Source of the DNA: Pseudomonas silvicola
GTDB lineage: Bacteria > Pseudomonadota > Gammaproteobacteria > Pseudomonadales > Pseudomonadaceae
Direction of reading: 5' to 3'
Assembly (NCBI RefSeq): GCF_026651855.1
Contig: NZ_CP093280.1
Location: 6,532,501-6,596,500 of the forward strand
DNA length: 64,000 nucleotides
Positions 5,423 to 35,059 of this stretch are shown piece by piece; within the stretch, counting starts at the first letter, position 1, and the number at the start of each line of letters is the position of its first letter. The notes under the pieces were generated by a model. The model saw only the letters and a program-made list of their open reading frames with translations. It made no database searches and was not told the DNA's origin. The position numbers and the translations under genes are program-made.

Positions 5423-5510
5423 CTCTGCAGGCCGCGTCGGCAGTGCAGGCACTGTGCCTGAAGCTGCGAGCGCGCGCAGAAGAACACGATGATGGGCCAA
5501 TGATGGCCTA

Positions 5511-5538
5511 TTGACCTATACATACCGGTCTGTATACT
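5511..5538 (+). promoter_or_regulatory. Unit 1 promoter with overlapping TetR-type operator
   Basis: A -35 TTGACC (5511-5516) and -10 TATACT (5533-5538) are separated by 16 bp. The 20-bp near-perfect palindrome TATACATACCGGTCTGTATA (5517-5536; 9 of 10 pairs match) fills the spacer and covers most of the -10, so a bound repressor would block RNA polymerase. The same element with the identical right half GGTCTGTATA lies at 20017-20036. The island encodes one TetR-family protein (34454-35059), the obvious candidate binder. Promoter function and regulator identity are inferred. Confidence 0.75.
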
Positions 5539-5567
5539 TCGCGCCATTCAGCTCGGAGATACCGCAC

Positions 5568-7328
5568 ATGGACGTGTTCTGTCCTTCCTCACCCCTCGAG
5601 GAAGCGCCACCGCTTGCTCGGCCCACGGCCTTTGAGACACTTGTCGACCTGTTGCGCTGGCGCGCCCTCTACATGCCCGAGCGCCTGGCCTTTTCGTTTG
5701 CCGTGAATGCCGACGACGCGCAACGCTTTACCTACCTGCAGCTCGACCAGGCGGCCCGCGCCCTGGCCCATGCCATGCAGCAGCGCGGGCTCGCCGCGGG
5801 GCGGGCAGTGATATTGCTGCAGCCGGGGGCCGACTACATTATCGCGCTGGTGGGCTGCTGGTACGCAGGCATCACCGCGGTACCGGTCTACGCGCCACGC
5901 AACAACACCTCCAACCAGCGCGTGCGGCTCATTGTGCAGGACGCCCAGGCCAGTGTGGTCATCAGCACGGCCAGCGCTCTTGAAGCGTTCGAGCCCGATG
6001 ACTATCAGGTGCAAGCACCCCTGTCGCTGGTCCCCATCGACCAGATTCCGGCCAGCGGGGCGGACCTCTGGACAGCACCGGCGATCCATGGCCAGACCCT
6101 CGCGGTGCTGCAGTACACTTCCGGCTCCACTGGCGCGCCCAAAGGCGTTCGCCTGCAGCATCGGCACCTGTTGAAAAACTCGGAAATGATTCGCCGAGCC
6201 ATGGGCCACGACGAGCACGATATCGGCGTGGCATGGCTGCCGCCCTACCACGACATGGGCCTGATCGGCAGCATCGTGCAACCGTTCTACAGCGGCTACC
6301 CGGTTCACCTGTTGGCCCCGGCGACTTTCCTGCAACGGCCGCTACGCTGGCTGGAAATGATCTCCTCATACCGGGCGACCGTGAGCGCAGCCCCCAACTT
6401 CGCCTATGACCTATGCACCCGCCGGGTCAAGCCCGAGCAGTTGGCCCGCCTGGACCTGTCCCACTGGCGCTTGACGGCCAATGGCGCCGAGCCTGTGCGC
6501 CAACAGACGCTGGATGCATTCCAGGCCTGCTTCGCCGCGGCTGGCCTGCGCCCCTCGGCCTTTCAGCCCTGCTATGGCATGGCCGAGACCACGTTGCTGG
6601 TCAGCGCCGCCGACCCTGCGCGCGTCTATCACCAGGTGGCCGTTGACCGCGAGCAGCTCAAGCGTGGCCGCTTGCTGCGCACCGAAGCCGCGGCCAACAC
6701 GCAGACGCTGATCAGCAGCGGCCGCGCCGACCGGGACGTGACCTTGCGCATAGTGGCCCCGCACACCCTCACGCCGCTACCCGAAGGCGAGGTCGGCGAG
6801 ATCTGGCTGGCTGGCCCCATGGTCGCCGACGGTTACTGGAACAACCCCCAGGCCACGGCTGAAACCTTCCATGCCCACTTGCCAGGCGATGACCGGGCGT
6901 GGCTGCGCACCGGTGACCTCGGCGCACTATTGGATGAGGAACTGTTCGTGACCGGGCGTATCAAGGACGTAATCATCATGGCCGGCCATAACCATTACCC
7001 CACCGATATCGAGGCCACCGTCATGCAAGCGCACCCGGCCGTGCGGCCCGACGGCGTGGCCGCCCTGGCCCTCGATGACGGCAGCCAGGAGCACCTTACC
7101 CTGGTGGTGGAACTGGAGCGTGGCTGGCGTGACCTGGACTTGCAGGGCGTACGCCAGGCCATCATCAGCCACGTCTCGCAACACCACCAACTGCGGGTGG
7201 ACCGGCTGGTGCTGGTGCCGGGCAACACCCTGCCGAAAACCTCCAGCGGCAAGATCCAGCGGGCCTTGACCCGCGAGTTGCTGGCCAAGGACATGATCCA
7301 GGCGCTGGGCACGGAGCCTTGCCCATGA
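5568..7328 (+). CDS. fatty-acyl-AMP ligase (FAAL), first island gene
   Basis: A 586-aa ANL-superfamily ligase. P-loop TSGSTGAPKG (about residues 184-193), YHDMG (227), YGMAETT (336), RTGDLG (about 447) and the C-terminal lysine motif KTSSGK (about 558) are all intact. Pairing with a free ACP downstream, plus YHDMG and GMAETT wording, points to a FAAL that adenylates a fatty acid and loads it onto ACP rather than CoA. Start ATG 5568 is chosen because GGAGA precedes it and because the paralogue at 20069 starts identically (MDV after CACATGGAC); upstream in-frame codons would lie in the promoter. Its stop overlaps the next start (ATGA). Confidence 0.9.
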   Translation: MDVFCPSSPLEEAPPLARPTAFETLVDLLRWRALYMPERLAFSFAVNADDAQRFTYLQLDQAARALAHAMQQRGLAAGRAVILLQPGADYIIALVGCWYAGITAVPVYAPRNNTSNQRVRLIVQDAQASVVISTASALEAFEPDDYQVQAPLSLVPIDQIPASGADLWTAPAIHGQTLAVLQYTSGSTGAPKGVRLQHRHLLKNSEMIRRAMGHDEHDIGVAWLPPYHDMGLIGSIVQPFYSGYPVHLLAPATFLQRPLRWLEMISSYRATVSAAPNFAYDLCTRRVKPEQLARLDLSHWRLTANGAEPVRQQTLDAFQACFAAAGLRPSAFQPCYGMAETTLLVSAADPARVYHQVAVDREQLKRGRLLRTEAAANTQTLISSGRADRDVTLRIVAPHTLTPLPEGEVGEIWLAGPMVADGYWNNPQATAETFHAHLPGDDRAWLRTGDLGALLDEELFVTGRIKDVIIMAGHNHYPTDIEATVMQAHPAVRPDGVAALALDDGSQEHLTLVVELERGWRDLDLQGVRQAIISHVSQHHQLRVDRLVLVPGNTLPKTSSGKIQRALTRELLAKDMIQALGTEPCP

Positions 7329-9124
7329 GCCCCGCACAGTACTTACCCGCACTGGTGCTGGAACAATCCCTGGGCGACCCCTGGCTGGCCGACAACTCGC
7401 TGTCGTACGCCACGGCGTTGCAGCTGGACGAGGAGGACGCGTTTCCCGAGGCTCAGGTAACCACCCTGAACGCATTGGGCCTGCACAAAGGCTACGTGCC
7501 GCACGGCTACGGCGGCAGCTTTCGCAACAGCGAAACCTTCCTGGCCCTGGGCCGGGTGCTTGCACGCCGCAACATGTCAGTGGCGGTCGCCTACAGCACC
7601 ATGCTGTGGAGCACCCTGGGCTGGCTGGGCGGCAACGAACGGCAGAAACACGAGATGGCCCGCTGGATCATGCAGGCTGGCAGCTTTCCTTGCCTGGCCT
7701 ATTCAGAAGCCGATCACGGTGCCGATCTGAGCGCCAACCAATTGACCGCCACCCTCAACGACGATGGCTCGTACACCTTGAACGGCGAGAAATGGCCGAT
7801 CAACCGCGCCATCCGTTCAGGGTTCCTGGTGCTGCTGGCACGCACTGAGCAAGGCGCGCATCTGCGCAACCACTCCCTGTTCATCGTCGCCAAGGACCAG
7901 CTCGACAGCCAGTGCTACTACCACTTGCCGCGCATCAAGACCCACGGCCTCAAGGGCTGCGACATCAGCGGCATCGGTTTTCGCCACTGCGTCATTCCCG
8001 CCAGTTGCCGGGTAGGCCTGGAAGGGCACGGCCTTGAGCTGGCACTCAGGGGTTTCCAGGTCACGCGCACGTACTGCACCGCGCTGTCGCTGGGCGTCGG
8101 TGATGGCGCCCTGCGCGTGGCCGCCGAGCACGCGGCAAACCGCCAGCTCTACGGCACCACCATCGACCAACTGCCGCACACCCGGGACGTGCTCGCCAAC
8201 GCCTACCTGTCGCAACGGCTTGCCGAATGCCTGTCGATCGTCACGGCGCGTGGCCTGCACGTGTTCCCCGAGCTGTATTCGTCGTGGTCATCGATCGCCA
8301 AGGTGCAGGCCAGCCAACTGGTGGACTTTGCCTGCAAGGAGCTCAGCGGTGTGCTCGGCGCGCGCTTCTACATGCGCGATCAGCACGGTGTGGGAATGTT
8401 CCAGAAGTTCGTTCGGGACGGCGCCGTGGTCTCGATCTTCGACGGCAGCACCGCCGTGTGCCTGGACAGCCTGGCGACGCTGCTCGATACCCTGACCCGC
8501 GATGGCGAGCCGCCGCCCACCCAGGACATGCTGCGGGCCTTGTTCGACCTGGAGCACGACCTGCCGGACCTGGACTACGACCGGGTAAAAATCTACTCGC
8601 GCGCCAGCGACCCGCTGCTGCGCGCCCTGCCCCAGCTGGTGCAGCGCCTGGAGACCCTGGCGGCGTGCAACGACTGCGACACCGCGACACTGTACCGCCT
8701 GCAGGCAAGCACCCGACGCTTCATGGCCAGGGTGGACGGCCTGAAAGTGCAGATCGCCCAGGCGCGCCAGCGCGGCGGGCGCAACAGTGCATTGCGCTTT
8801 GCCCAGGCCCAGAGCTATTGCGCCGTCTTCACGGTCGCCGCCTGCCTGGGCTTGTGGTTGTTCAACCGCGAAAAGTTCGGCAGGGCCTTCAAGACCGGCC
8901 AATGGCTGGAAGCGGCGCTGAACCGCGAACTGGGGGCGACGTTTCGCACCGGCGCCCTGGACCCGACGCTGACCGATGCGCTGTTTGCCCAGTTGGACGC
9001 GCAGCGCCGTCGCGGTGACATGTTCTCGTTGCTCAACTGGCCACTGGCCGAGCCTGGGCAACGGGAGCATCTACATGGATTCGACCTGGACAAGGAATAC
9101 CGTTTTGAACCTCTCGCACGCTGA
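7325..9124 (+). CDS. acyl-CoA dehydrogenase-like flavoenzyme, probably acting on acyl-ACP
   Basis: A 599-aa protein of the acyl-CoA dehydrogenase fold. Visible signatures are AYSEADHGADLSANQLTAT (the SEP.AGSD-like FAD/substrate loop), NGEKWPINRA, a middle beta domain and a helical C-terminal domain, plus about 150 extra C-terminal residues. Its place between a FAAL and an ACP suggests it desaturates or oxidises an ACP-bound acyl chain, as TamT does in tambjamine biosynthesis. I could not place the catalytic glutamate with confidence. ATG 7325 (ATGA overlap with the FAAL stop) is preferred over TTG 7319. The 3' end overlaps the ACP start by 50 bp. Confidence 0.85.
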   Translation: MSPAQYLPALVLEQSLGDPWLADNSLSYATALQLDEEDAFPEAQVTTLNALGLHKGYVPHGYGGSFRNSETFLALGRVLARRNMSVAVAYSTMLWSTLGWLGGNERQKHEMARWIMQAGSFPCLAYSEADHGADLSANQLTATLNDDGSYTLNGEKWPINRAIRSGFLVLLARTEQGAHLRNHSLFIVAKDQLDSQCYYHLPRIKTHGLKGCDISGIGFRHCVIPASCRVGLEGHGLELALRGFQVTRTYCTALSLGVGDGALRVAAEHAANRQLYGTTIDQLPHTRDVLANAYLSQRLAECLSIVTARGLHVFPELYSSWSSIAKVQASQLVDFACKELSGVLGARFYMRDQHGVGMFQKFVRDGAVVSIFDGSTAVCLDSLATLLDTLTRDGEPPPTQDMLRALFDLEHDLPDLDYDRVKIYSRASDPLLRALPQLVQRLETLAACNDCDTATLYRLQASTRRFMARVDGLKVQIAQARQRGGRNSALRFAQAQSYCAVFTVAACLGLWLFNREKFGRAFKTGQWLEAALNRELGATFRTGALDPTLTDALFAQLDAQRRRGDMFSLLNWPLAEPGQREHLHGFDLDKEYRFEPLAR

Positions 9125-9380
9125 CCTGCCGTACCTGCGCGACAAGCTCCTGGCCATGGTGCACCGCGAAATGCGCCTGGCCGATGTCGTCGTGGCCGCC
9201 GACCGCAACCTGGCCGAGTACGGCCTGGACTCCATCGTCGCGCTGACCATCGCCGGCGACCTCGAAGAAGAGTTGGGTATTGAACTGCCGCCCACCTTGT
9301 TGTGGGACTACCCCACCATCAACGACCTGGCCGGCTACCTCGCCAGCCTGGCGCCCCGCCCTGCCGGAGATGCAGCATGA
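9075..9380 (+). CDS. acyl carrier protein of unit 1
   Basis: A 101-aa carrier protein. The phosphopantetheine site is Ser53 in EYGLDSIVAL, followed by the usual helix II/III sequence (DLEEELGIELPPTLLWDYPTI). ATG 9075 has GGGAG about 8 nt upstream and overlaps the dehydrogenase end by 50 bp. A TTG at 9105 would drop ten residues and still keep the domain. It is the probable acceptor of the acyl group activated by the 5568 FAAL and the donor to the NRPS condensation domain. Its stop overlaps the NRPS start (ATGA). No phosphopantetheinyl transferase is present in the window, so a chromosomal one elsewhere is needed. Confidence 0.92.
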   Translation: MDSTWTRNTVLNLSHADLPYLRDKLLAMVHREMRLADVVVAADRNLAEYGLDSIVALTIAGDLEEELGIELPPTLLWDYPTINDLAGYLASLAPRPAGDAA

Positions 9381-12300
9381 GCACCGCCGTACCGGTGGCC
9401 GCCTGGCCCATTGCCGAAGAGCAGAAAGGCTTGTGGTACCTGCAACAGGCCCACCCCCAACTGGGTGCCTACAACCTGCTGTTCAGCTGCACGGTGGAGA
9501 AAACCGGCGAAGCATGGCCTTCGACCGAGTTCGTCCAGCGCATGATCAACGACTACCCGCTGCTGCGCACCGCGTTCGTCAGCCAGCCAGGAGGGGCGGT
9601 GGAGCAACAGGTCGTGGCCCATCTGCGGCCCAGGGTAGTGCACCATGATGCCCGCGACCTAACCGACGACAACTTGCGCGAGCGCGCACGCCAGGACAGC
9701 CGCGCCCCCCTGGACCTGAACGAACCGGGTGCCTGGCGCATTCACCTGTACCGCCGCACGCCGGACTGTTACCTGCTGGTGGTGGTCATGCACCACATCG
9801 CTTTCGATTTCTGGTCCATGGGGCTGCTGCTCAAGGACGCCATGGCGCGATGGCAGGGCCAACCGAGCACCTTGCCCGCTGAACAGGCCAATGGGTACGA
9901 ACAACACGCGCGCCAGCCCCTTGACCCTCAACGTCATCAGCAACTGACCCGCTACTGGACAGCCAGCCTGCTCGATGCCCCTGCCTTGCATAGCCTGCCG
10001 TTGGACCACCCGCGGCCCGGTACCCAGGCGTTTCAAGGCGCATCATGGTCATTTCGGCTTGACCCGGCCACCAGCGCCGGCATTCAGGCGCTGGGGCGCT
10101 CATTGCACGCGACCCCCTACATGGTGATGCTGGCGATCTACACCGGTTTCCTCGGGTACTGGTCATCCAGCAGCGACGTGGTGGTGAGTACCCCCGTCGC
10201 CAACCGCACGGCCAGGCGTCTGCGCAATACCCTGGGGCAGTTCGTCAACACCCTGTGCCTGCGCACGTACCCCGCGCCGGACGCGACCTTCGCCACACTG
10301 GTAGGCGATATCAAAACCACGGTCACCGAGGCCATCCGCCATCAGGACCTGCCCTTTTACCGCCTGGTGGAAGCCCTGGTCCCCAAGCGCGATTCCAGCT
10401 ACCAGGCCATCGCCCAGTTGGGCTTTTCATGGGAACACCTGCCTGTGCTGGAGGACTTCGCGGCCTTCTACGGCCAGGAAGCCTCAAGCGTGGGGCCGAC
10501 CGCCGGCAATGTGCGGCTGAGCCCCTTCCCCGTGCCGCAACAGGAAGGGCAACTGGACCTGCTGCTGGAAATGGGCGGCCAGACTCAGGGCGGCTATGAC
10601 GCCACCCTGAAATACAACCCGCACCTGTTCGACCTTGCCACGGTCCGGCAAATGGCCGAGCACCTGGCGGCCATGGCAGCCCGCATGGTCGCCAACCCGG
10701 CGCTGCCCCTGGCCGAACTGGCCCAGGCCAACGCTCACCAACAGGCCCGCTGGCAAGCACTGGGCCGGGGCCAGCCGCTGATCCTGGGTAACCGGACACT
10801 GCTGCACTTCATTGGCCAGCATGCCCGCGCCCGCGCTAATAGCCCCGCCGTCGCCGACGCCCACCACACCTACGGTTACCAGCAATTGTGGCAACGCAGC
10901 CAGCAGTGGGCGCAGGCCTTGCACAGCCGCGGTGTGGTCAAGGGTGCCCGGGTAGGGTTCAAACTGGAGCGTTGCGCCGACCTGGTACCGTTGATCATTG
11001 GCATCTGGCGGCTGGGGGCCTGTTACGTGCCCCTGGACCCGCACTTTCCTGCTGAGCGCCTGGCCTACATCGCCCAGGACGCGCAATTGACCCTGGTGGT
11101 GACGGAGCCCGAACTGGACGATTTCCCCAGCGCCATACCGCGGCTGCTTACCCAGGAGGTGGGTGAAACGGGGCCCATTGCCCTGCCCGAACCCGCCCAG
11201 GCTGATGACACAGCGTACATTCTCTACACCTCCGGCTCCACCGGCCAGCCCAAGGGCGTGGAGGTGAGCCACCTGGCCTTGCTGAACTTCATGCTGGCCC
11301 TGCACGACGAGCTGGCGTTCGACAGCCAGACTCGCCTGCTGGCCGTGACCACGCCGTCCTTCGATATTTCGCTGCTGGAGCTGTTTTTGCCACTGGTGGC
11401 CGGCGGCCTGGTGCAGGTCGCCGATTTCGCCAGTACCCGTGACGGCGCAAGCCTGGCGGGGTTGATCGAGCAGCACGCGATCAACACCCTGCAGGCAACC
11501 CCTGCCACCTGGCAGATGCTGCTTGAACAGACCGCGCCTGGCGCCCTGGAAACGCTGACGGCGCTGTGTGGTGGCGACGCGTTGCCACAGGCGTTGGCAG
11601 ACCGCCTGCTGGCCCGCACCGCTGCCGTGTGGAACCTGTACGGGCCAACGGAGACCACCATCTGGTCATCGCTGGCCCGGCTGCAGTGCGGCGTACCGGT
11701 TAGCCTCGGCAAGCCGATCGCCAATACCGAGTTCATCGTGCTGGACGATCAGCAGCGCCTGGTGCCACCGGGCATGCTCGGCGAACTGTGGATTGGTGGC
11801 GCAGGCTTGGCCAAGGGTTATTTGCACCGCCCGGAGCTGACCCGGGAGCGCTTTTGCGTGCTGCCTCGGTTGGGCACGCAGCGCTGGTACAGAACCGGCG
11901 ACCAGGTTCGCTGGAACAGCCGCGGTGAACTGGAGCACCACGGCCGCCTGGACTTTCAGGTCAAGCTGCGCGGCTACCGCATCGAGCTGGAAGAAGTGCA
12001 GGCCCGCCTTTTAGCCCTGCACGGCGTGCAGCAAGCGGTGGCGGCCGTGGTCGACCATGAGCTGGGCAGCGCGCTGGTGGCCTACCTGGTGACCGAAGCG
12101 GGTGCCGAGCCGGCCATCGGCTGGCTCAAAAGCCAACTCAAGGCACAACTGCCGGCTTACATGGTGCCCACCGAATTCGTGTTTCTGGCACGGCTGCCTC
12201 TGACCCCCAACAACAAAGTCGATCGCCAGCGGCTGCCTGCCCCGGGCCCACGCGCCACCCGCGTGGGCATCACTGCCCCACGCGACGATCTGGAAGGCCA

Positions 12301-13339: not shown

Positions 13340-13800
13340 TTCGTGCCCAATACAGCCGCCTGTTCAACCTGTCGCGCTCAACGCTGTTCGACTACCTGCG
13401 CAACCCCCTCAACGATCGGCACTGGCAGGGCTCCTGCGCGCAGGTTGAATTGCTCGATGGCAGCATCGAGCCCGGCAGCCGCTACGCGATCGTCTTCAGT
13501 TTCCTGGGGCGGCGGATGAACTTCGAATGCCAGATCACGGCGCTTGAGCCGCCCGCGCGCTATGCCTTCAAGGTACTGCAGGGGCCCTTCCTGTACGAAG
13601 GCGAGTACGGCCTCGAAGCCGTGCCCGAGGGTACCCGCCTGAGCTGGCAGTTCGACGTGGAGCCAGGCCGGTTCTTCGGCATCTTGCCAGTCTCGCTGCT
13701 GAAAAAAGTATTGATCTCGCAAGTCGAGAAGGACCTCTCCCGCCTGGCGACGTTGCTGCAGGACGACGCAGCCCTTTCAAAGGAATGGATTCATGAATAA
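13336..13800 (+). CDS. SRPBCC (START/Bet v1-like) family protein
   Basis: A 154-aa protein with the pattern of an SRPBCC hydrophobic-cavity fold: an N-terminal helix after RAQYSRLFNLSRSTLFDYL, alternating beta strands (ECQITALEPPARYAFKVLQG; LEAVPEGTRLSWQFDVEP) and a long C-terminal helix (ISQVEKDLSRLATLLQ). Members bind lipids or act as polyketide cyclases/aromatases. With no aromatic polyketide machinery here, lipid binding, or helping release or cyclise the acylglycine product, is more likely. Both ends overlap neighbours (ATGA with the NRPS, 8 bp with the transporter), implying coupled translation. There is no signal peptide, so it is cytoplasmic. Confidence 0.75.
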   Translation: MIRAQYSRLFNLSRSTLFDYLRNPLNDRHWQGSCAQVELLDGSIEPGSRYAIVFSFLGRRMNFECQITALEPPARYAFKVLQGPFLYEGEYGLEAVPEGTRLSWQFDVEPGRFFGILPVSLLKKVLISQVEKDLSRLATLLQDDAALSKEWIHE

Positions 13801-18150: not shown

Positions 18151-18198
18151 CAGCGGCCGCTTCCCAGACGCCGCGTAGCGCCAGGCTGACGCGGGCCT

Positions 18199-18770: not shown

Positions 18771-18799
18771 CGTGCAAGCGGCACTCCTGGCGCTTTGCT

Positions 18800-19864: not shown

Positions 19865-19980
19865 TGTTCATTCCCTGAAAAACGGTGGGTGGAGGGCTAA
19901 GAGTCCCCCTGCCTGCGCGCAGACTCTACTCTCGCCGCCTACCTCATGGAAGCCGATGCCAGCAGCGTGACGGGTCCGCC

Positions 19981-20013
19981 AAAGATGATGGCATTTTGAT
20001 CCAGATCATCTTT
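19981..20013. promoter_or_regulatory. inverted repeat upstream of unit 2 promoter
   Basis: Perfect 9-bp arms AAAGATGAT (19981-19989) and ATCATCTTT (20005-20013) with a 15-nt spacer touch the -35 box of the unit 2 promoter. No counterpart is present ahead of unit 1. It could be a second, unit 2-specific operator or serve the divergent SDR gene; this is speculative. Confidence 0.4.
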
Positions 20014-20038: not shown

Positions 20039-20068
20039 CGCGCCACTTCATCTTCCGAGATGCTCCAC

Positions 20069-22642: not shown

Positions 22643-22746
22643 GCGGGCCTTGGCCCGCCAGCCCCGTGGCCTGGCAAACGCTGTACTGGCGCCTTACACA
22701 CTAAAAACAACACTTTCCGCAGCTTCCTGAAGCCGCTGGAAGCTGC
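22642..22746 (+). other. two strong hairpins between the FAAL-like gene and the next ligase
   Basis: Immediately after the stop is GGCGGGCC-TT-GGCCCGCC (22642-22659). Further on, GCAGCTTCC and GGAAGCTGC (22719-22727 / 22738-22746) form a 9-bp stem with a 10-nt loop, ending 17 nt before the next ATG. Neither is followed by a T-run, so they are not classic terminators. They may reduce read-through, stabilise mRNA or tune translation of the downstream genes. Confidence 0.55.
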
Positions 22747-22763
22747 ACTGTGCGAGAACCGTA

Positions 22764-24413: not shown

Positions 24414-24551
24414 GCTGGCGCCGGACCTACGGCACCCCTTCGCTGATGTTCGTCACTCGTACCGAGGCCCCATGGGGCCTGGGCGCGAACGGGCCCGTGC
24501 GCCCGGGCCACCGGCACGGCATGAATCCATGAACAATGAACAGGAGTCCCC

Positions 24552-27485: not shown

Positions 27486-29325
27486 ACTGTTCAGCCTTGG
27501 CCGCGCCGAGCCTTTCAAATCCTACGACCGGATCGACTCGATCAGTGATGTGGTCGACCTGTGCTTCGACGCTTACGCCAGCCGGCCAGCCATCGTCCAT
27601 GACACTGGCGCCGGTTATGAAAAGATCCATTTCGGCGAGTACGCCCATGCGGTGAAGGCCATGGTGCGCTTCCTGCAGGCGCGGCCTGGCAGTGGCAAGG
27701 TGCTGGGCACCTTCTGCAAGAACCGCTTCGAATGGGACGTCTACGCCCACGCCTCGTTCTATACCGCCAACCGCCTCTTTCCCATCGATACCAAGATCAA
27801 TGACGTCGAGATGCTGCACATCCTGGGCATCAGTCCACTGGACACGGTGCTGGTCAGCATGGGCCAGTACGCTCGGCTCAAGGACGTCTGCGACCAGGCC
27901 GGCCAGAGCCCGCTGTTCGTGATCGCCGACCTGCTGGTCACCTTCGAAGACCAGGGTGTCGACCCGCGCGCGTTCAGGCAGCAGCACCCCGAACTGCTGT
28001 ATGTCAGCCAGGTGGTCGAGCAGTACGGCAACGGGCCTGCAGTCAGCCCGAACCCGCTGCTGAGCGAGCCTGACGTGGTGCTGGGCCTGTACCCCACTTC
28101 GGGTACCACCAGCCTGCCCAAGGTGGTGCAGATCACCCAGCGCAACATCGTGCACCAGGTCAACGAGTCGGTGGACGTGCTCAACCTGCGCCCCAACGAA
28201 GCGATCCTCAATATCGGCCCCTATACCCACATCGCCACGCTGGTCGAATTCCTCCTGACCAAGACTCGGGGCTTTACCGTCATATACTTCACCCGCGAGC
28301 CGGATGAAGACGGTGTGCTGGAAAACGAAATCAAACGGTTGAAGAACGCCGGTTTCCGCATCAAGGCACTGATGGCAGTGCCCAAGTTCTGGATCTACGT
28401 GCTCAAGGAAGTGCTGGAAGAGATGCGCGTGAAGCCGGTGATGAACACGGTCTACAACCACCTCACGCAGATCGAGCTGAAAGGCGATACCTATGACCTG
28501 GGCACACTGGACAAGGCCAAGCTGACCGCCGCCAGTATCCTGCTGCGAAACAAGCTGGGCGGCTACTTCAGCTACGGCGTGTCGTCGTCGATGAAGCTGG
28601 ACCCGGCCATCATCGAGATTTTCGGCAAGCTGGGGGTGACCATCATGGACATCTACGGCGCCACGGAATGCTCGGGCATCATCTCGCGCAACAAGCTCAA
28701 CGACATCGTGCTGGGTTCCACCGGCCGTATCATCGACGGCCTGGCGTTCCGCCTGGAGGGCCTGCACAGCATTCCGGGCCTGCCTCGCCCGGCCGGCAAT
28801 CTGCTGCTCAAGGGGCCAACCATCAGCGCAGGCTACTTGGGCATGGAGCTGCCGCTGTCGGACGATGGCTATTACGACACGGGCGACGTGGCCTACGTCG
28901 ATGAGCAACGTTCCCTGTATATCGTGGGCCGCAAGAAGGAGTTGCTGCGCTGGCACGACGGCAGTTACGTCGACCCGCAGAAAATGTCCAACCTGATGGT
29001 GCGCAGCCTCTACATCAAGGACGCCATGGTCATCCACGCCGCCCCCGAGGATGACTGCCTGACGGCGTACCTGTACCCGGACTACGCGCGTATCGAGAAA
29101 GACCCCGACTACATCAGCGCGCGGCAGCAAGGCATCGCCCAGGCCACCGTGCTGCGCCAGTTGTTCGGCCGGGCCGTCGACTTCGCCAACGCGACATCGG
29201 GCATCACGGCAACCATTTCCAGAACCCGCATCTACTTGTTGCCGCGCAAGCTGGAGCGTACGCCCACGCACAAGATCAAGTTCATCTTCGAACTTCAGCG
29301 CCTGCACGAATCCACTGCCCTTTGA
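27475..29325 (+). CDS. AMP-binding ligase, long-chain acyl-CoA synthetase-like
   Basis: A 616-aa ANL protein of the long-chain acyl-CoA synthetase type. The P-loop is YPTSGTTSLPKVV, with two canonical glycines changed (usual TSGTTGxPKG). Further motifs are IYGATECSG, DTGD and GRKKELLRWHDGSYVDP, with a C-terminal lysine-containing KLERTPTHKIKF. Adenylation therefore looks possible, but the altered loop makes activity less certain. ATG 27475 has CAGGA upstream and overlaps the preceding stop by 11 bp. It might activate another acid, ligate an amine to an acyl group, or load the ACP at 29383. It is followed by a strong hairpin. Confidence 0.8.
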   Translation: MLSKLFSLGRAEPFKSYDRIDSISDVVDLCFDAYASRPAIVHDTGAGYEKIHFGEYAHAVKAMVRFLQARPGSGKVLGTFCKNRFEWDVYAHASFYTANRLFPIDTKINDVEMLHILGISPLDTVLVSMGQYARLKDVCDQAGQSPLFVIADLLVTFEDQGVDPRAFRQQHPELLYVSQVVEQYGNGPAVSPNPLLSEPDVVLGLYPTSGTTSLPKVVQITQRNIVHQVNESVDVLNLRPNEAILNIGPYTHIATLVEFLLTKTRGFTVIYFTREPDEDGVLENEIKRLKNAGFRIKALMAVPKFWIYVLKEVLEEMRVKPVMNTVYNHLTQIELKGDTYDLGTLDKAKLTAASILLRNKLGGYFSYGVSSSMKLDPAIIEIFGKLGVTIMDIYGATECSGIISRNKLNDIVLGSTGRIIDGLAFRLEGLHSIPGLPRPAGNLLLKGPTISAGYLGMELPLSDDGYYDTGDVAYVDEQRSLYIVGRKKELLRWHDGSYVDPQKMSNLMVRSLYIKDAMVIHAAPEDDCLTAYLYPDYARIEKDPDYISARQQGIAQATVLRQLFGRAVDFANATSGITATISRTRIYLLPRKLERTPTHKIKFIFELQRLHESTAL

Positions 29326-29331
29326 CCCTGC

Positions 29332-29356
29332 CAAGCCGAGCGTGACGCTCGGCTTG
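29332..29356 (+). other. perfect 11-bp stem-loop ahead of the second ACP gene
   Basis: CAAGCCGAGCG - TGA - CGCTCGGCTTG forms an uninterrupted 11-bp stem with a 3-nt loop, placed 6 nt after the ligase stop and 26 nt before the ACP start. It is followed by CCCCTAG, with no U-tract, so it is not a standard intrinsic terminator. It may protect or separate the ACP-MMPL part of the message. Confidence 0.7.
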
Positions 29357-29382
29357 CCCCTAGCTGCCAGAGCCTGAACACC

Positions 29383-29652
29383 ATGATGCAAGAACAACTC
29401 CTGACTGAACTGTCTTCCCTGCTGGGCGAACTGGAAATGACCGATGGCGGGCAACGCCCCGCCGATTTCGACGTGCGCGCCTGTGACAATTTCGACTCCA
29501 TGGCCCTGTCGCTGTTCGTCTGCGCCATCGAAGACAACTACAACATCAGCCTCACCCTGGCAGAACTGTCGGAAGCCGGCACTCGCTTGTCGAACGTGGT
29601 CGGGCTGATCCTCGGCAAGCTCGGGCGGGCACCTGCCCCCCTCCCGGCCTGA
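29383..29652 (+). CDS. acyl carrier protein of unit 2
   Basis: An 89-aa carrier protein. Ser39 in CDNFDSMALSLFV is the phosphopantetheine site (D-S-M in place of D-S-L), and the region after it (IEDNYNISLTLAELSE) fits helix II-III. Two adjacent ATGs (29383, 29386) make the exact start uncertain. It is the only carrier in unit 2 and the likely partner of the 22764 FAAL and the aminotransferase-reductase. It differs clearly from the unit 1 ACP, suggesting two non-interchangeable acyl channels. Confidence 0.88.
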   Translation: MMQEQLLTELSSLLGELEMTDGGQRPADFDVRACDNFDSMALSLFVCAIEDNYNISLTLAELSEAGTRLSNVVGLILGKLGRAPAPLPA

Positions 29653-29683
29653 CTCCCCCAGTACCCGCCCAAGGACTCGACCC

Positions 29684-32086
29684 ATGTACAAGTACGCGAC
29701 GTTCATCCTGCGCCAGCGCGTGTTGATCATTCTGGTCACGCTGGTCATCACTGCCGTGCTGGGGACATTCGGTGCCAGCGTCAGGATCGCTATCAACCCG
29801 GCGACCCTGGCACCCCAGGACCACCCTCTGATCAAGACCACCAACTACCTGGAATCGGTATTCGGCTCCAAGTACCTGATGCTGATCGGCATCACGCCCA
29901 AGACCGGTGATGTCTACCAGCCCCAGGTGCTGCAAGCCGTACAGAAAATCACCGAGCAATTGAGCGTCGCCCCCGGTGTCGTGCATTCGACTCTGCTGAG
30001 CCTGGCCAGCCGCTCGTCCAAAGGCATCAAAGGCACCGAGGAAGGTTTCGAGGCCCGGCCGTTGCTGCCCGACGACCTTGGCGAAGTGGATTACGCGGCA
30101 CTCAAGCAGGCCCTGGCGCAAAACCCGGCCTACCAGAAAACCGTGATCTCCGCTGACGGACGCACCGCCGCCATCCTGGTGGAACTCAAGGAGCGCACCG
30201 ACGGCTTCACTGCGATGGTCGAACCCATACGCGCCATTGCCGATGCCCAGGCCTCCCCCGACCTGACCATCACCTATGGCGGCGACCCGGTGTACCTGGA
30301 GAAGACCGAGCAATACGCCAAGCGCATCAACATCCTGTTTCCCATCGCCATCCTGGTCATCGGCCTGTTGCACCTCGAGGCTTTCCGAACCTGGCAGGGC
30401 TTGGTGCTGCCATTGGTGACGGCGTTGATGGCCGTGGTGTGGGGTATCGGCTTCATGGGCGCGCTGCACCAACCCATGGACATTTTCAACTCGGCCACAC
30501 CGATTCTGATCCTGGCCGTGGCGGCTGGCCATGCGGTGCAACTGCTCAAGCGTTATTACGAAGCGTATGGCCAATTGCGCGGGACAGATGTGAGCCCCGT
30601 GCAGGCCAACCGCGAAGCGGTGATACGCTCGCTGACGGGCGTCGGCCCGGTGATGCTGATTGCCGGCAGCATTGCCGCCGTCGGCTTTTTCTCGCTGCTG
30701 GTGTTCGACATTCCCACCATTCGCTCGTTCGGCGTGTTCACTGGCATTGGCATTCTCAGCGCCATGCTGCTGGAAATGACCTTCATCCCGTCCATCCGCT
30801 CCCTGCTCAAGCCACCGTCTGACAAGGCCATGCAGAAGGAGACGCGCCCGCGCGCGTGGGACCGCTTGCCGGCCGCCGCCGCGCGCCTGGTCATCCAGCC
30901 ACGTAGCCGCGCCCTGCTGCTGGCCGGTGTCACGGTGGCGACCCTGGGGATGGTCTATGGCATGCAGCAGGTGGTCATCAACAACGCCAGCAAGAATTAC
31001 TTCTCGGCCAACCTCGATATCCAGAAGGATGATGCCTTCCTGAATGCCGGCCTCGGCGGCACCAACAGCCTGTACGTGATGGTTGAAGGTGACCAGCCCG
31101 ATACCATCAAGCGCCCGGACGTCATGGGCGCCATCGACCAGTTGCAGCAGTTCGCCGAAGCCCGGCCGGATGTCGGCAAGACCCTGTCCATCGCCACGTT
31201 TGTGCGGCGCATGAACAAGGCCATGCACGCCGACCAGCCAGCGTTCGACCAGGTGCCCGATAACCAGAACCTGATTTCCCAGTACCTGCTGCTCTACTCG
31301 ATGTCCGGGGAACCCGGCGACTTCGATGCCTACGTGGACTACAACTACCGTCGGGCGAAGGTCACGCTACTGCTCAAGACCGGTGACAACCAGGCTATCC
31401 AGACCTTGCTGACCCAGTTGCGCGGCGAGGCCACCAAGGTGTTCCCCGCCGACGTGAAAGTGACCTTCGGTGGCTCCGCGGCCCAGACCCTGGCCATGAC
31501 CGACACCCTGGTCCACGGCAAGATCCGCAACATCATCCAGGTGGCACTGGCCATTTTCGTGATTTCCACGCTGGTGTTCCGCTCCCCGTTCGCCGGGCTG
31601 ATCATCCTCACGCCACTGGCGTTGGCGGTGGTGGCGATCTTCGGCATCATGGGCCTGGCTCACATTCCGTTGAACATTCCCAACTCGTTGATCTCGGCCA
31701 TGGCCGTCGGGATTGGCGCCGACTACGCGATCTATATCCTCTACCGGCTGCGTGAGCAGATTCGTACGGGCCAGGACGCCATAAACGCCGTGCACACCAC
31801 TTTGGCCACCGCCGGCAAGGCCTCATTGTTCGTGGCCACTGCGGTCGCCGGTGGCTACGGCGTGCTGGCGTTATCCTTCGGTTATAACGTGCACCTGTGG
31901 CTGTCGATGTTCATCGTGGTAGCGATGCTGGTCAGCGTGCTGGCTGCGCTGACTCTCGTGCCCGCGCTGGCCCTGATGTTCAGGCCTCGGTTCATCTTCA
32001 ACCCACGCGTGGGCGGCAAGGCGCAGGGGGCGCCGCAGCCGACGCCTGCCACACAGGCGGTACCTGCCGGGAAACTGGATAATTGA
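29684..32086 (+). CDS. MMPL/RND-family lipid transporter (second)
   Basis: An 800-aa paralogue of the permease half of the 13793 protein. It has the same opening (FILRQRV..., TAVLGTFGA), the same loop segments (VFGSKYLMLIGITPK, LLYSMSGEPGDFDAYVDY) and the same TM block with DYAIYILYRLREQ. It has no LolA-like domain and ends with a short Pro/Ala-rich cytosolic tail. Twelve TM segments are expected. It may work with the LolA-like domain and barrel of unit 1, or export an intermediate. Its 3' end overlaps the convergent MBL-fold gene by 89 bp. Confidence 0.92.
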   Translation: MYKYATFILRQRVLIILVTLVITAVLGTFGASVRIAINPATLAPQDHPLIKTTNYLESVFGSKYLMLIGITPKTGDVYQPQVLQAVQKITEQLSVAPGVVHSTLLSLASRSSKGIKGTEEGFEARPLLPDDLGEVDYAALKQALAQNPAYQKTVISADGRTAAILVELKERTDGFTAMVEPIRAIADAQASPDLTITYGGDPVYLEKTEQYAKRINILFPIAILVIGLLHLEAFRTWQGLVLPLVTALMAVVWGIGFMGALHQPMDIFNSATPILILAVAAGHAVQLLKRYYEAYGQLRGTDVSPVQANREAVIRSLTGVGPVMLIAGSIAAVGFFSLLVFDIPTIRSFGVFTGIGILSAMLLEMTFIPSIRSLLKPPSDKAMQKETRPRAWDRLPAAAARLVIQPRSRALLLAGVTVATLGMVYGMQQVVINNASKNYFSANLDIQKDDAFLNAGLGGTNSLYVMVEGDQPDTIKRPDVMGAIDQLQQFAEARPDVGKTLSIATFVRRMNKAMHADQPAFDQVPDNQNLISQYLLLYSMSGEPGDFDAYVDYNYRRAKVTLLLKTGDNQAIQTLLTQLRGEATKVFPADVKVTFGGSAAQTLAMTDTLVHGKIRNIIQVALAIFVISTLVFRSPFAGLIILTPLALAVVAIFGIMGLAHIPLNIPNSLISAMAVGIGADYAIYILYRLREQIRTGQDAINAVHTTLATAGKASLFVATAVAGGYGVLALSFGYNVHLWLSMFIVVAMLVSVLAALTLVPALALMFRPRFIFNPRVGGKAQGAPQPTPATQAVPAGKLDN

Positions 32087-32858
32087 ACGCCAGTGCCTGA
32101 CCATCGGCCGGAATATGCAAGCGCTCGCCCAGGCCGACCTGTTCGGCCCGGGCAGCCAGTTCGCGTCGGGTGACCGGGCAATGATTGAGGGCCTCCAGGT
32201 GGTTGGCTACCACCTGGCCGGTAGCCAGCTGAGCGAACTGCAGCGCTTCGTCGATGCCCATGATGATTTCGCTGCCGATGTCCAACTGTGCCCCGCCGGC
32301 CGGGATCACCGAGACCTGCGGTTGGTGCTGGAGGACGAAATCGCGCACCGTGTCGGTCAACACGGTATCGCCTGCCAGGTACAGGCTGGGTTCGCCCGGC
32401 ATCTGCAGGAAATAGCCGACACCGTGTTCCATGAACCCGCCGATCAGGCCCAGGCCATGGGTACAGCGCACCGTGGTGACCGTACCGCCCAACCACCCTT
32501 CGGGCTCGCCAGGCACGGCGGCCAATGGCTCGACGTTCAGGCCCTGGCGTGCCAGGTAGCGTGCATCGTGTGGGGTGCATATCACCGGGATGCCGCGCTC
32601 ACGCAGCCATTTGGCACCCGGCCGGTCGAGATGGTCGAAGTGGCCTCGCTGGCAGTGGGTGATCAGGCAGTGCGTCACCGTGTCCAGCAACGCCGCGGCC
32701 TCACTGGGCAAGTCGACCACGGGGTTTCGGCTGCAGTGGCTGAAGAGCCGCAAGGGGGGGTGCGCGAATCGCTGCCCCAGCATGGGGTCGACGAGGATTC
32801 GATGACCGGCCAGCTCACACACGAGGGTGGCATTTCTGATCTGGTGGATTTTCATCAT
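31998..32858 (-). CDS. MBL-fold (metallo-beta-lactamase-like) hydrolase
   Basis: A 286-aa protein of the UlaG/lipid-hydrolase-like MBL type. Strands typical of the fold are seen (HILVDPMLG; LYLAGDTVLTD; NHLEALNH). The metal motif reads THCQRGHFDHLD: GHFDH is kept, but the first histidine of HxHxDH is Arg, with another His two residues further upstream. Metal binding may therefore differ. Adjacent starts 32858 and 32855 are possible. The last roughly 29 codons lie antisense to the MMPL transporter end. The gene is divergent from the Lnt-like gene across 92 bp. Hydrolysis of a lipid ester, thioester or lactone product is a guess from context. Confidence 0.8.
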   Translation of the reverse strand: MMKIHQIRNATLVCELAGHRILVDPMLGQRFAHPPLRLFSHCSRNPVVDLPSEAAALLDTVTHCLITHCQRGHFDHLDRPGAKWLRERGIPVICTPHDARYLARQGLNVEPLAAVPGEPEGWLGGTVTTVRCTHGLGLIGGFMEHGVGYFLQMPGEPSLYLAGDTVLTDTVRDFVLQHQPQVSVIPAGGAQLDIGSEIIMGIDEALQFAQLATGQVVANHLEALNHCPVTRRELAARAEQVGLGERLHIPADGQALAFNYPVSRQVPPVWQASAAAPPAPCRPRVG

Positions 32859-32950
32859 GACCCTGCAAACGTCCTGTAGACCCTCAGCCTAGCTGAAAAC
32901 AGAGCTGGCATCGGGCCGCTATCGGTGTCCGACTGGATCAAGGAGTTTCG

Positions 32951-34495
32951 ATGTTTCCGATCACTTGCCGTCCCTGCAACGGTTATCTCCTGGCGCTGGC
33001 AGCAGGCGCACTGATGCCGCTCGCCCTGGCGCCCTTCAATCTCTGGCCCCTGGCGCTGCTGTCCGCCGCGCTGTTCTACCATGGCTTGAAAACCCTGCCT
33101 GCCCGGCTGGCCTTCCGGCAGGGCTGGTGCTATGGGTTCGGCAGCTTCGGGGCAGGCACCAGCTGGGTCTACGTCAGCATCCGCGATTTCGGTGACGCGC
33201 CCTTGCCACTGGCCCTCGCGCTGACCGTTGGGTTTTGCGCGGGGCTAGCGCTGCTTTTTGCCGTGCACGCTTATCTGTGGGCGCGCTACTTCAGGCGCGA
33301 CCAGGCCCCTGTGGCTGATGCCCTGGCCTTCGCGGCGCTATGGCTGGCCATGGAAGTGCTGCGCAGTGTGCTGCTGGGTGGTTTCCCCTGGCTGCTGCTG
33401 GGCTATTCACAGCTGGACGGCCCCCTCGCCGCGCTGGCTCCGCTGGGTGGGGTGTGGCTGATTTCGGCCGCGCTGGCGCTGACGGCGGCCCTGCTTGCCA
33501 GCGCCCGCGCCTGGCACCGCCGCCCCCGGCAAGCGCTAAGGGCGGTGGCCTTGTTGTTCGCACCCTGGGCCACGGGCTTGCTGGCCAACGGCTACGCCTG
33601 GACCCAACCGGCAGGCCCGGCACTGAAAATAGCGGCAGTACAAGGCAATGTGGCGCAGCAACTCAAATGGGACCCGGCCTATGCGCGTTCGACGCTTGAC
33701 CATTATCGCCAATTGACGGCGCCCCATGGCGACGCCGATCTGGTGGTGTGGCCGGAAAACGCCATCGCACTGCTGCGCGAGGACGTGGGGCCACCGTTGC
33801 GTGCGATGGATGAAGCGTTCAAGGGCCGCCATCAGGCGTTGATCACCGGCATTCCGGTGAGCCAAGCCGATGGCCACGGGGGCCAGCGTTTCTATAACAG
33901 CCTGATGGTGATCGGCGCCGGCACCGGCACCTACTTCAAGCAAAAGCTGGTTCCCTTTGGTGAATATGTGCCGCTGCAGCAATACCTGAGGGCGGTAATG
34001 GGGTTGTTCGACCTGCCCATGTCGAACTTCAGCCCAGGGCCTCCCCGGCAACCGCCGCTGCTGGCCAAAGGCATCACCGTCGCTCCGCTGATCTGTTATG
34101 AAGGGGTGTTCCCGCAATTGTCGGCCGAGCAGGCCAGCCATGGCCAACTCATCGTCACGGTCAGCAACGATACCTGGTTCGGCCGCTCGATCGGGCCGGC
34201 CCAGCACCTGCAGATAGCCAGAATGCGCGCGCTGGAAAGCGGGCGGTGGATGGTCAGGGCCACCAACAGCGGCATCACCGTGCTGGTCGACCCATTGGGG
34301 CATGTACAGGCCCGCCTCGCGTCATTCCAGAGCGGTGTACTGCGTGGCGATGTCGTGCCCATGACAGGCTCGCCCCCTTACCTCAGGTGGCGCCTCTGGC
34401 CCCTGGGCAGTGGCTGTGCGCTGGTACTGGCGTTGGCCGCGGTCCTTGGACGCTCAAGCCGACGCCGCCACCGCCACGCGGTGATGCTGCAATAG
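32951..34495 (+). CDS. second apolipoprotein N-acyltransferase-like protein (Lnt paralogue)
   Basis: A 514-aa protein. N-terminal membrane segments (about residues 10-205) are followed by a periplasmic nitrilase-fold domain. The Lnt triad is intact: Glu269 in VWPENAI, Lys330 in YFKQKLVPFGEYVP and Cys382 in LICYEGVFP. The known enzyme moves an acyl chain from phospholipid to the N-terminal amine of lipoproteins. The housekeeping lnt of Pseudomonas normally sits beside corC/ybeX, so this looks like an extra copy dedicated to the island, perhaps acylating an amine- or glycine-containing lipid in the periplasm. RBS AAGGAG precedes ATG 32951. The 3' end overlaps the convergent tetR-type gene by 42 bp. 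Confidence 0.9.
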   Translation: MFPITCRPCNGYLLALAAGALMPLALAPFNLWPLALLSAALFYHGLKTLPARLAFRQGWCYGFGSFGAGTSWVYVSIRDFGDAPLPLALALTVGFCAGLALLFAVHAYLWARYFRRDQAPVADALAFAALWLAMEVLRSVLLGGFPWLLLGYSQLDGPLAALAPLGGVWLISAALALTAALLASARAWHRRPRQALRAVALLFAPWATGLLANGYAWTQPAGPALKIAAVQGNVAQQLKWDPAYARSTLDHYRQLTAPHGDADLVVWPENAIALLREDVGPPLRAMDEAFKGRHQALITGIPVSQADGHGGQRFYNSLMVIGAGTGTYFKQKLVPFGEYVPLQQYLRAVMGLFDLPMSNFSPGPPRQPPLLAKGITVAPLICYEGVFPQLSAEQASHGQLIVTVSNDTWFGRSIGPAQHLQIARMRALESGRWMVRATNSGITVLVDPLGHVQARLASFQSGVLRGDVVPMTGSPPYLRWRLWPLGSGCALVLALAAVLGRSSRRRHRHAVMLQ

Positions 34496-35059
34496 CACGG
34501 TCAGTACCTGGGTGGCGGCATCCAGGGAGTCGCCGGTGATGCCGATCGCGGAGAGATTGCGCGCGCCTTCGAACAGAATCAGGCACTGCAGCGCCAGCGC
34601 CTGAGGGTTGGCATAGCCGAACATCTGCAGTAACCGGGAGAAGAGCTCGATCAAGGTCTGCTTGTGCAGTTGGCACACCTGATGAATAGGGTGCTCGGGC
34701 TCGCTGTACAGGTTGGCGGCACTGACGAAAAGGCAGCCGCGCACCGAGGTGTCAATGAATTTGGCCCGGTACCACGCCAGCAGCCCTGCTATCTGTGGTT
34801 CCATGACTAACGGCGACTGGGCAACCCGCTGCTGGATCTCCGCGATGATCTCGGCGTGATAACGCTTGAGGCACTCTTCGATCAGATCGTCCTTCGAAGA
34901 GAAATACTTGTACAGCGTCATTTTACTGATGCCGGAACACTTGATGACACGATCTACGCCGACGGATTGGAAACCTTCATACAGAAAAAGCTCCAAGGCC
35001 GTGGTCAACAGCTTTTCTCTCGCCAAGGACATTAAGCGCTCACTTATCCGATCTTCCAT
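34454..35059 (-). CDS. TetR/AcrR-family regulator, probable island repressor
   Basis: A 201-aa protein. The N-terminal helix-turn-helix (about 28-60: SVGVDRVIKCSGISKMTLYKYFSSKDDL) is a textbook TetR DNA-binding domain, and the C-terminal domain is all-helical. It is the only regulator in the island. The two island promoters carry a 20-bp palindrome of the length TetR dimers bind, so it is the best candidate to repress both units until a lipid ligand binds. I see no matching palindrome upstream of this gene, so autoregulation is not evident. ATG 35059 is used; the 3' end overlaps the Lnt-like gene antisense by 42 bp. Confidence 0.88.
   Translation of the reverse strand: MEDRISERLMSLAREKLLTTALELFLYEGFQSVGVDRVIKCSGISKMTLYKYFSSKDDLIEECLKRYHAEIIAEIQQRVAQSPLVMEPQIAGLLAWYRAKFIDTSVRGCLFVSAANLYSEPEHPIHQVCQLHKQTLIELFSRLLQMFGYANPQALALQCLILFEGARNLSAIGITGDSLDAATQVLTVLLQHHRVAVAASA

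What the first reader, a model, noticed from the sequence alone, without database searches (positions are those of the whole stretch)
5511..35059. Two-arm lipid biosynthesis and export island with fatty-amine and acyl-glycine branches
Seen: unit 1 has FAAL, flavoenzyme, ACP, glycine-type NRPS, SRPBCC protein, MMPL-LolA fusion and barrel. Unit 2 has FAAL, aminotransferase-acyl-ACP reductase fusion, ligase, a second ACP and a second MMPL. An SDR, an MBL protein, an Lnt paralogue and a TetR gene accompany them. Family knowledge: FAAL + TamT-like dehydrogenase + TamH-like fusion makes fatty amines in tambjamine biosynthesis. Inference: the two arms meet, giving an N-acylglycine released by, or later joined to, a fatty amine: a two-tailed glycine lipid placed in the outer membrane or secreted. 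I know of no described system with this gene set.
Basis: partly seen in the sequence, partly recalled or inferred. Interest (0 to 1): 0.9.

Follow-up and report, generated by a model that had tools for sequence, protein, structure and literature searches.

The report
Acinetin-type and fatty-amine lipid operons
A 30-kb island in a Pseudomonas carries two neighbouring lipid-making operons, one a relative of an operon known from Acinetobacter and one a less familiar fatty-amine cassette; each also occurs without the other elsewhere, so the idea that they jointly build one two-tailed lipid is not required.

Summary
In detail: the genes listed are there, in a ~30-kb stretch (about 5374-35255). In 7 of 7 relatives its two borders lie only 0.8-5.6 kb apart. 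Two points were missed. The first FAAL of unit 2 (20060-22642) lacks its catalytic motifs and is internally duplicated. The unit 2 MMPL has lost the LolA tail and barrel that its closest relative keeps.

Unit 1 is not an undescribed gene set. Its seven genes match, in order, the Acinetobacter baumannii A1S_0112-0119 (acinetin-505) operon, whose NRPS was crystallised with glycine. It is a new Pseudomonas member of a known kind.

Unit 2 is a TamH/KecF-type fatty-amine cassette (FAAL, aminotransferase-reductase, second ligase, ACP), conserved in order in three other genomes. In Pseudomonas its outer genes (FAAL, MMPL) descend from a unit-1-type operon. I found no description of it.

Unit 1 occurs without unit 2 in 5 of 6 genomes tested, unit 2 without unit 1 in 2 of 3. 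One genome (G604) has both, on different contigs. The joined two-tailed glycine lipid is therefore not supported, though not excluded. Most likely there are two products, possibly sharing unit 1's LolA and barrel, or unit 2 is partly decayed.

The parts
5374..35255 (.). island (approximate limits; right border not settled)
   Evidence: borders 0.8-5.6 kb apart in 7 of 7 relatives
5511..7328 (+). unit 1 FAAL (an in-frame ATG lies near 5568), A1S_0112-like
   Evidence: PF00501 1.2e-64 and FAAL subfamilies; 36% to A. baumannii, 55-59% to G736/G169
7319..9124 (+). unit 1 acyl-CoA-dehydrogenase-type flavoenzyme, A1S_0113-like
   Evidence: Pfam; 37% A. baumannii, 58-66% G736/G169/G079
9114..9380 (+). 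unit 1 free-standing ACP, A1S_0114-like (start uncertain)
   Evidence: PF00550 2.6e-18; 48% A. baumannii
9377..13339 (+). unit 1 single-module NRPS C-A(Gly)-T-TE with Cys-type TE (GWCFGG)
   Evidence: Pfam; motifs and glycine code; AB3403 1121 bits against 649 for the next chain
13336..13800 (+). unit 1 SRPBCC (Polyketide_cyc2) protein
   Evidence: kept in G079, G169, G736, G479, G708 and A. baumannii
13793..16933 (+). unit 1 MMPL transporter fused to periplasmic LolA-like domain
   Evidence: PF03176, PF17131; 54% A. baumannii, 66-76% G736/G079/G169
16930..18150 (+). unit 1 outer-membrane barrel (DUF1302-like)
   Evidence: same position in G079, G169, G736, A. baumannii
18177..18768 (.). 4.9 tandem copies of a 120-bp unit, REP-like by recall
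18800..19864 (-). SDR/NAD-binding_4 protein, distant relative of the A1S_0118-like ORF
   Evidence: PF07993 1.3e-29; 28% over 316 aa to the A. baumannii ORF
20060..22642 (+). degenerate FAAL relic of unit 2: internal tandem duplication (period 1143 bp), no catalytic motifs
22764..24413 (+). unit 2 FAAL-like ligase, motifs intact
   Evidence: 69% to 36C6
24552..27485 (+). unit 2 TamH/KecF-type fusion: class-III aminotransferase then acyl-ACP reductase
   Evidence: 81% to 36C6
27448..29325 (+). unit 2 second AMP-forming ligase (likely start near 27475)
   Evidence: 81% to 36C6
29383..29652 (+). unit 2 ACP (DSM site; PF00550 16.1 bits, below cut-off)
   Evidence: ACP-like ORF (by eye) at same place in G595 and G604
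29684..32086 (+). unit 2 MMPL transporter without LolA tail
31998..32858 (-). metallo-beta-lactamase-fold protein of unit 2
   Evidence: 21.5 bits, below Pfam cut-off; 68% to 36C6
32951..34495 (+). second apolipoprotein N-acyltransferase (Lnt) gene
   Evidence: G000 has two, four other genomes one each
34454..35059 (-). TetR regulator of unit 2
   Evidence: 65% to 36C6

Best explanation
The island carries two separable lipid operons. Unit 1 (5511-18150) is a Pseudomonas version of the A. baumannii A1S_0112-0119 (acinetin-505) operon. The FAAL activates a fatty acid and loads the ACP; the flavoenzyme probably oxidises the acyl chain or the later glycine intermediate; the NRPS joins it to glycine; a Cys-type TE releases it; SRPBCC, MMPL-LolA and barrel move it to the outer membrane or outside. 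Unit 2 (20060-35059) is a fatty-amine operon. The intact FAAL loads the second ACP; the TamH-type fusion reduces acyl-ACP to aldehyde and transaminates it to a fatty amine; the second ligase activates another acid, perhaps to amidate the amine; an MMPL exports the product. Unit 2's outer genes (first FAAL, MMPL) derive from a unit-1-type operon, into which the amine cassette was probably placed. In this strain the first FAAL is dead and unit 2's LolA and barrel are gone, so unit 2 either uses those of unit 1 or exports less well. Shown: gene content, homology, motifs, separability. Inferred: every chemical step, the order of events and the export route.
For: Seven-gene order of unit 1 in G079, G169, G736 and A. 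baumannii; five of the seven (FAAL to SRPBCC) in G479/G708, which have a distant MMPL upstream (23-26%) and no barrel match. AB3403 is the best solved relative of the NRPS by far; DILQLG in 7 of 7; passages of PMC5376624. Unit 2 core FAAL-fusion-ligase-ACP in the same order in 36C6, G595, G604. PLP Lys, GxxG and Cys in 31 of 31 fusions aligned, three loci left out; AAR structures 6jzq/6jzu match the C-terminal part. Measured TamA-TamH cascade, acid to amine (PMC9594044, passages). Independence. Trees place the unit 2 FAAL and MMPL as pairs (100/99 and 100/100) inside the Pseudomonas unit 1 group (100/100 and 93/99). dN/dS 0.12-0.20 for 22764-24413, fusion, ligase and MMPL against 36C6.
Against: G604 carries both units; chance of at least one such overlap is about 0.02 in the class sample, so some coupling is possible. 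Acinetin 505 as interpreted in PMC5376624 has a non-standard link between acyl chain and glycine part and no acyl unsaturation, so the simple 'desaturate, then N-acylate glycine' route may be wrong. dS is near 1 or above, so the ratios are rough and say nothing on recent inactivation. The second ligase has no close solved relative (best 64.7 bits, a luciferase). The barrel tree gave no starred branch, so the history of the barrel is open. The SDR, the MBL protein and the extra Lnt are unexplained.
Confidence: 0.66

Rival explanations
1. One reading: the arms converge in this strain. The NRPS thioesterase hands acyl-glycine to the fatty amine of unit 2, giving a two-tailed N-acylglycyl alkylamide, exported by the shared MMPL/LolA/barrel set.
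For: Units adjacent in one island; unit 2 lost its own LolA and barrel while unit 1 keeps them; TE has the less common Cys nucleophile, a type tied to non-hydrolytic release in ObiF (PMC6668435, passages); G604 has both units; zeamines are a printed case of two arms joined (PMC13291983, passages).
Against: Units live apart in most genomes examined. The same Cys-TE motif is in 7 of 7 unit 1 NRPSs; of the six other carriers, five lack the unit 2 ligase and the A. baumannii record has no match to it either, so the Cys-TE is no adaptation to unit 2. About 1.9 kb with an opposite-strand gene lies between the units.
Confidence: 0.13
2. Unit 2 is decaying: a relic operon that makes little or nothing in this strain.
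For: First FAAL dead and duplicated; LolA and barrel deleted; the first FAAL is also C-terminally truncated in 36C6.
Against: FAAL 22764-24413, fusion and second ligase keep open frames and catalytic motifs, ACP and MMPL keep open frames; dN/dS against 36C6 is 0.12-0.30 for the five.
Confidence: 0.22
3. Unit 2 alone makes a two-tailed lipid: the second ligase (27448-29325) activates a second fatty acid and amidates the fatty amine. (Not exclusive of the best explanation.)
For: Two ligases, one ACP and one amine-forming fusion kept together in 4 of 4 loci (window, 36C6, G595, G604).
Against: No sequence test here separates amide ligase from acyl-CoA or acyl-ACP ligase; best solved relatives are weak.
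Confidence: 0.3

Closest known systems
A. baumannii A1S_0112-A1S_0119 operon (acinetin 505; NRPS AB3403, PDB 4zxh/4zxi)
   Same: Same seven genes in the same order as unit 1, 36-54% identity; glycine code (7 of 9 positions) and Cys-TE shared
   Different: A. baumannii has a 621-aa A1S_0118-type ORF and, by PMC5376624, a PPTase downstream; here only a distant, oppositely oriented SDR; quorum-sensing control not tested
Tambjamine TamA-TamH cascade (Pseudoalteromonas tunicata)
   Same: Fusion with N-terminal aminotransferase and C-terminal AAR-like reductase, catalytic residues kept
   Different: FAAL and ACP are separate genes; extra ligase and MMPL; no bipyrrole genes among the proteins scanned
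Koreenceine (kec) clusters of Pseudomonas
   Same: KecF is described as the same kind of fusion; suspected export genes follow it (PMC6498172, passages)
   Different: Unit 2 has FAAL/ligase starters instead of the ketosynthases and ketoreductases of kec
Zeamine/fabclavine pathways
   Same: Precedent for an amine lipid arm and a peptide arm in one cluster (PMC13291983, passages)
   Different: No PUFA-type synthase among the island proteins scanned (a PfaC-like one stands beside unit 2 in 36C6)

Membership tests
A1S_0112-0119 (acinetin-505) operon, unit 1 | FAAL-ACAD-ACP-NRPS-SRPBCC-MMPL/LolA-barrel in this order | tested here: met
A1S_0112-0119 (acinetin-505) operon, unit 1 | glycine-activating single C-A-T-TE NRPS | tested here: met
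   sequence level only; glycine in 4ZXI from PMC5376624
A1S_0112-0119 (acinetin-505) operon, unit 1 | A1S_0118-type protein and PPTase at the end of the operon | tested here: inconclusive
   SDR related at 28% to half of it but on the other strand; no PPTase family among the proteins scanned, but not every ORF was scanned
A1S_0112-0119 (acinetin-505) operon, unit 1 | product acinetin 505 | not testable with these tools
   -
TamH/KecF-type aminotransferase-reductase | N-terminal class-III aminotransferase with PLP lysine, C-terminal AAR-like domain with GxxG and Cys | tested here: met
TamH/KecF-type aminotransferase-reductase | makes fatty amine from acyl-ACP | not testable with these tools
Koreenceine (kec) cluster, unit 2 | paired ketosynthases and ketoreductases around the fusion | tested here: not met
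   none among the unit 2 proteins scanned; such a layout with LolA and MMPL is at 18 of 30 other Pseudomonas fusion loci
Tambjamine cluster, unit 2 | bipyrrole (MBC) pathway alongside | not tested
   no such gene seen among proteins scanned; genome not searched for it
Single two-arm pathway | both units always kept together | tested here: not met

The most novel reading that the evidence does not exclude
In this strain, and perhaps in G604, the two operons have become one pathway: the Cys-type thioesterase of the glycine NRPS transfers acyl-glycine to the fatty amine made by unit 2, and unit 2, having lost its own LolA and barrel, exports through those of unit 1, giving a two-tailed glycine lipid of the outer membrane.
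Probability: 0.1. Interest if true: 0.75.

Novelty: new variant of a known kind. Interest (0 to 1): 0.42.

Why it matters
It puts the still poorly understood acinetin-505 operon, tied to surface motility and biofilm in A. baumannii (passages), into Pseudomonas and other Gammaproteobacteria, where the lipid can be studied outside that pathogen. It shows a fatty-amine cassette (FAAL, TamH-type fusion, second ligase, ACP), undescribed as far as my searches go, that has borrowed the entry enzyme and exporter of that operon. Among 30 other Pseudomonas loci with a TamH-type fusion, 26 have a LolA-like gene nearby (no background rate was measured), so amine-ended products and LolA-type export seem to go together; that link is testable.

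Tried and rejected
Rejected: that the gene set of unit 1 is undescribed. Rejected: that unit 2's LolA or barrel survives elsewhere in the window; only unit 1's are found. Rejected: that the glycine NRPS has an orthologue in 36C6 (best-scoring match 33%). Rejected: that 36C6's PfaC-like synthase is in the window's genome; only ketosynthase-level matches of 28-34%. Led nowhere: plasmid search with the second ligase (no match at 1e-30); paper searches for a described fatty-amine/LolA system or an N-acylglycine NRPS of Pseudomonas, whose listed rows gave, of use here, only the tambjamine, zeamine-related and koreenceine papers; tRNA and Rfam scans at the right border (none); terminator scan between the units at chance level, one promoter-like site upstream of 20060. 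The genome-contig scan found one relative only; it works from short exact peptides. The barrel tree resolved nothing. A first motif count with wrong-strand ORFs was replaced, where three loci (L011, L014, L021) gave no ORF with the motif and were left out. A first reading of the flanks in 5 relatives was widened to 7 and found weaker on the right side than I had taken it to be. No structure prediction was run.
Full report
Setting. The window lies in a genome of 8.65 Mb in 3 contigs, completeness 99.99, contamination 8.04. I take it for a Pseudomonas from the 81% match of the fusion to Pseudomonas frederiksbergensis 36C6 and the many 'same genus' genomes. In 7 of 7 relatives (G002, G003, G004, G005, G007, G010, G011) the FtsX gene left of the island and a conserved stretch at 35256-35711 right of it lie 0.8-5.6 kb apart; here they are about 30 kb apart. 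The FtsX gene was found in 18 of 19 genomes, own included. The genes further right in the window (4HBT, SixA, GpsA) do not follow in the relatives over the stretches fetched, so the right side is rearranged too and the right border is not settled.

Unit 1. FAAL, flavoenzyme, ACP, NRPS, SRPBCC, MMPL-LolA and barrel follow one another with overlaps or small gaps. The flavoenzyme was sought in 398 Pseudomonas genomes: 6 matches at 1e-60, of them own, G079 and G169 close (100, 65, 63%) and three at 34-35%; two of those three were looked at and lie beside large NRPS genes. In the class sample it is in 5 of 360 at 1e-90: own, G736, G604, G479, G708. All seven genes stand in the same order in G079, G169 and G736; in G169 the barrel runs off the fetched stretch and in G079 the FAAL lies in two frames. 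G479 and G708 keep five (FAAL to SRPBCC), with a distant MMPL (23-26%) upstream and no barrel match; G604 is of the same type, its NRPS cut by the contig end. A plasmid search with the MMPL-LolA protein returned three A. baumannii records of chromosome size, 54% over the full length; the one fetched carries all seven genes in order. This is the arrangement described for A1S_0112-0119 in PMC5376624 (passages read). That paper reports that loss of A1S_0114 removes acinetin 505, a 505-Da compound with a hydroxylated C15 acyl part, a glycine-derived part and Cys-Gly, with an acyl linkage that is neither N- nor O-linked and no unsaturation seen in the acyl chain, and that the NRPS crystal 4ZXI holds glycine. 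PMC7997844 (passages) links the operon to surface motility and pellicle. Our NRPS matches that crystal chain at 1121 bits, the next chain at 649. The nine specificity residues read DILQLGLIW here and DILQLGVVW in A. baumannii; the thioesterase motif GWCFGG, with Cys, is in 7 of 7. That this code means glycine is recalled and backed by the 4ZXI report. A Cys-type thioesterase (GXCXG) makes a beta-lactone in ObiF (PMC6668435, passages), so release need not be plain hydrolysis.

Unit 2. The fusion has an aminotransferase domain first and a reductase domain second, the order reported for TamH (PMC9594044, passages). The reductase part matches cyanobacterial acyl-ACP reductase structures at 6e-11. 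PLP lysine, the first two glycines of the nucleotide motif and the cysteine are present in 31 of 31 aligned sequences, own included (third glycine in 14); three loci were left out for want of an ORF with the motif. The second ligase is the best marker of this cassette: 1 of 398 Pseudomonas genomes (own), 3 of 369 in the class (own, G595, G604), none in the plasmid set. FAAL, fusion, ligase and an ACP lie in the same order in 36C6, G595 and G604 (the ACPs of the last two by eye). G595 and G604 continue with a separate LolA-like gene and another MMPL, 36C6 with an MMPL-LolA fusion and barrel of unit 1 type. In 36C6 the cassette stands beside a PfaC-like ketosynthase gene and tandem ACPs, not beside an NRPS, and that genome has neither the flavoenzyme at 1e-20 nor a close NRPS (33%).

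How unit 2 was put together. In trees the unit 2 FAAL relics (first copy of 20060-22642 and its 36C6 partner) pair with 100/99 support and fall in a Pseudomonas unit 1 group with 100/100; the unit 2 MMPLs pair with 100/100 in a group with 93/99; the barrel tree is unresolved. The amine cassette proper is not of unit 1 origin (its FAAL is 23-27% to the unit 1 FAALs). So the simplest history is an acinetin-type operon whose middle was replaced by the amine cassette before the split from 36C6. Since then the window strain lost the LolA tail and barrel of unit 2, and the first FAAL lost its P-loop, A5 motif and C-terminal part and was duplicated internally at 99%. The remaining genes look maintained: dN/dS against 36C6 is 0.20, 0.12, 0.13, 0.30 and 0.14 for FAAL, fusion, ligase, ACP and MMPL, with dS near 1, so roughly measured.

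Do the arms meet? Direct tests: the ligase has no orthologue in G079, G169, G479, G708, G736 (0 of 5; best 59.6 bits over part of the protein), and the flavoenzyme is absent from 36C6 and G595 but present in G604 (1 of 3). Unit 1 is thus without unit 2 in 5 of 6 genomes tested and unit 2 without unit 1 in 2 of 3. The units are therefore not one obligatory pathway; a strain-specific join remains possible.

Wider pattern. All 30 other Pseudomonas loci with a TamH-type fusion (31 of 398 genomes with own) were read over up to 20 kb, one over 13 kb only: a LolA-like gene lies near in 26, with an MMPL in 18 of these and an FtsX-type transporter in 8; a ketosynthase lies near in 27. No background rate for random loci was measured. 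The 18 share the layout of koreenceine clusters as described in PMC6498172 (passages), where KecF is the same kind of fusion and kecIJK are suspected export genes. By that layout they are probably koreenceine-like; I did not compare them with the koreenceine genes themselves. LolA-type genes are thus common beside such fusions, and do not by themselves show an outer-membrane lipid.

Other genes. The Lnt gene is a true second copy: the window's genome has two, four other genomes one each, 53-55% to it. It was not seen in the 36C6 locus. The SDR is 28% identical over 316 residues to half of the A1S_0118-type ORF. The MBL and TetR genes are shared with 36C6 and so belong to unit 2.

Print. Searches for a described fatty-amine gene set with LolA/MMPL, the acinetin operon or an N-acylglycine NRPS of Pseudomonas (some lists were capped) showed the tambjamine, acinetin, zeamine-related and koreenceine papers and, in the rows listed, none on unit 2; only openly licensed papers are held. 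Reading: unit 1 is a new member of a known kind, unit 2 a new variant of a known kind, and their adjacency was seen in this strain alone.

Noticed in passing
L009 26-5594; L073 13651-19499: In P. frederiksbergensis 36C6 the unit 2 cassette is preceded by an SDR, an AMP ligase, a HAD-like and an FAD monooxygenase-like ORF (these four named by eye), tandem ACPs and a KS-AfsA-hotdog (PfaC-like) protein: a possible amine-ended secondary-lipid pathway.
   Followed up: partly
window 18177-18768: 4.9 near-identical tandem copies of a 120-bp unit that look like paired REP elements (REP by recall).
   Followed up: partly
window 4974-5373: This stretch at the left border lies in the opposite orientation to FtsX in G002, G003, G004 and G007, compared with the window: a local inversion next to the island.
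   Followed up: no
window 35711-39351: Genes right of the island (4HBT, SixA, GpsA) do not follow the border stretch in the relatives fetched: a second rearrangement.
   Followed up: partly
window 32951-34495: Extra apolipoprotein N-acyltransferase gene, second in this genome; role in the island unknown.
   Followed up: partly
L083 and L084: Two genomes outside Pseudomonas carry FAAL-TamH-ligase-ACP-LolA-MMPL as a compact six-gene cassette.
   Followed up: partly
L048, L049, L052, L097, L100, L102, L104, L106: Eight Pseudomonas loci with FAAL, desaturase-like (by eye), TamH-type fusion, FtsX permease, LolA-like and KS matches: another amine-lipid type.
   Followed up: no
L075 and L076: FAAL followed by two different acyl-CoA-dehydrogenase-type genes and an ACP after a large NRPS.
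   Followed up: no
G000 C1 about 1764919-1783146: Multi-ketosynthase, multi-ACP stretch elsewhere in the same genome.
   Followed up: no
NZ_CP064203.1, NZ_CP077849.1, NZ_CP104448.1: Records of 3.7-4.1 Mb in the plasmid collection that look like A. baumannii chromosomes.
   Followed up: no
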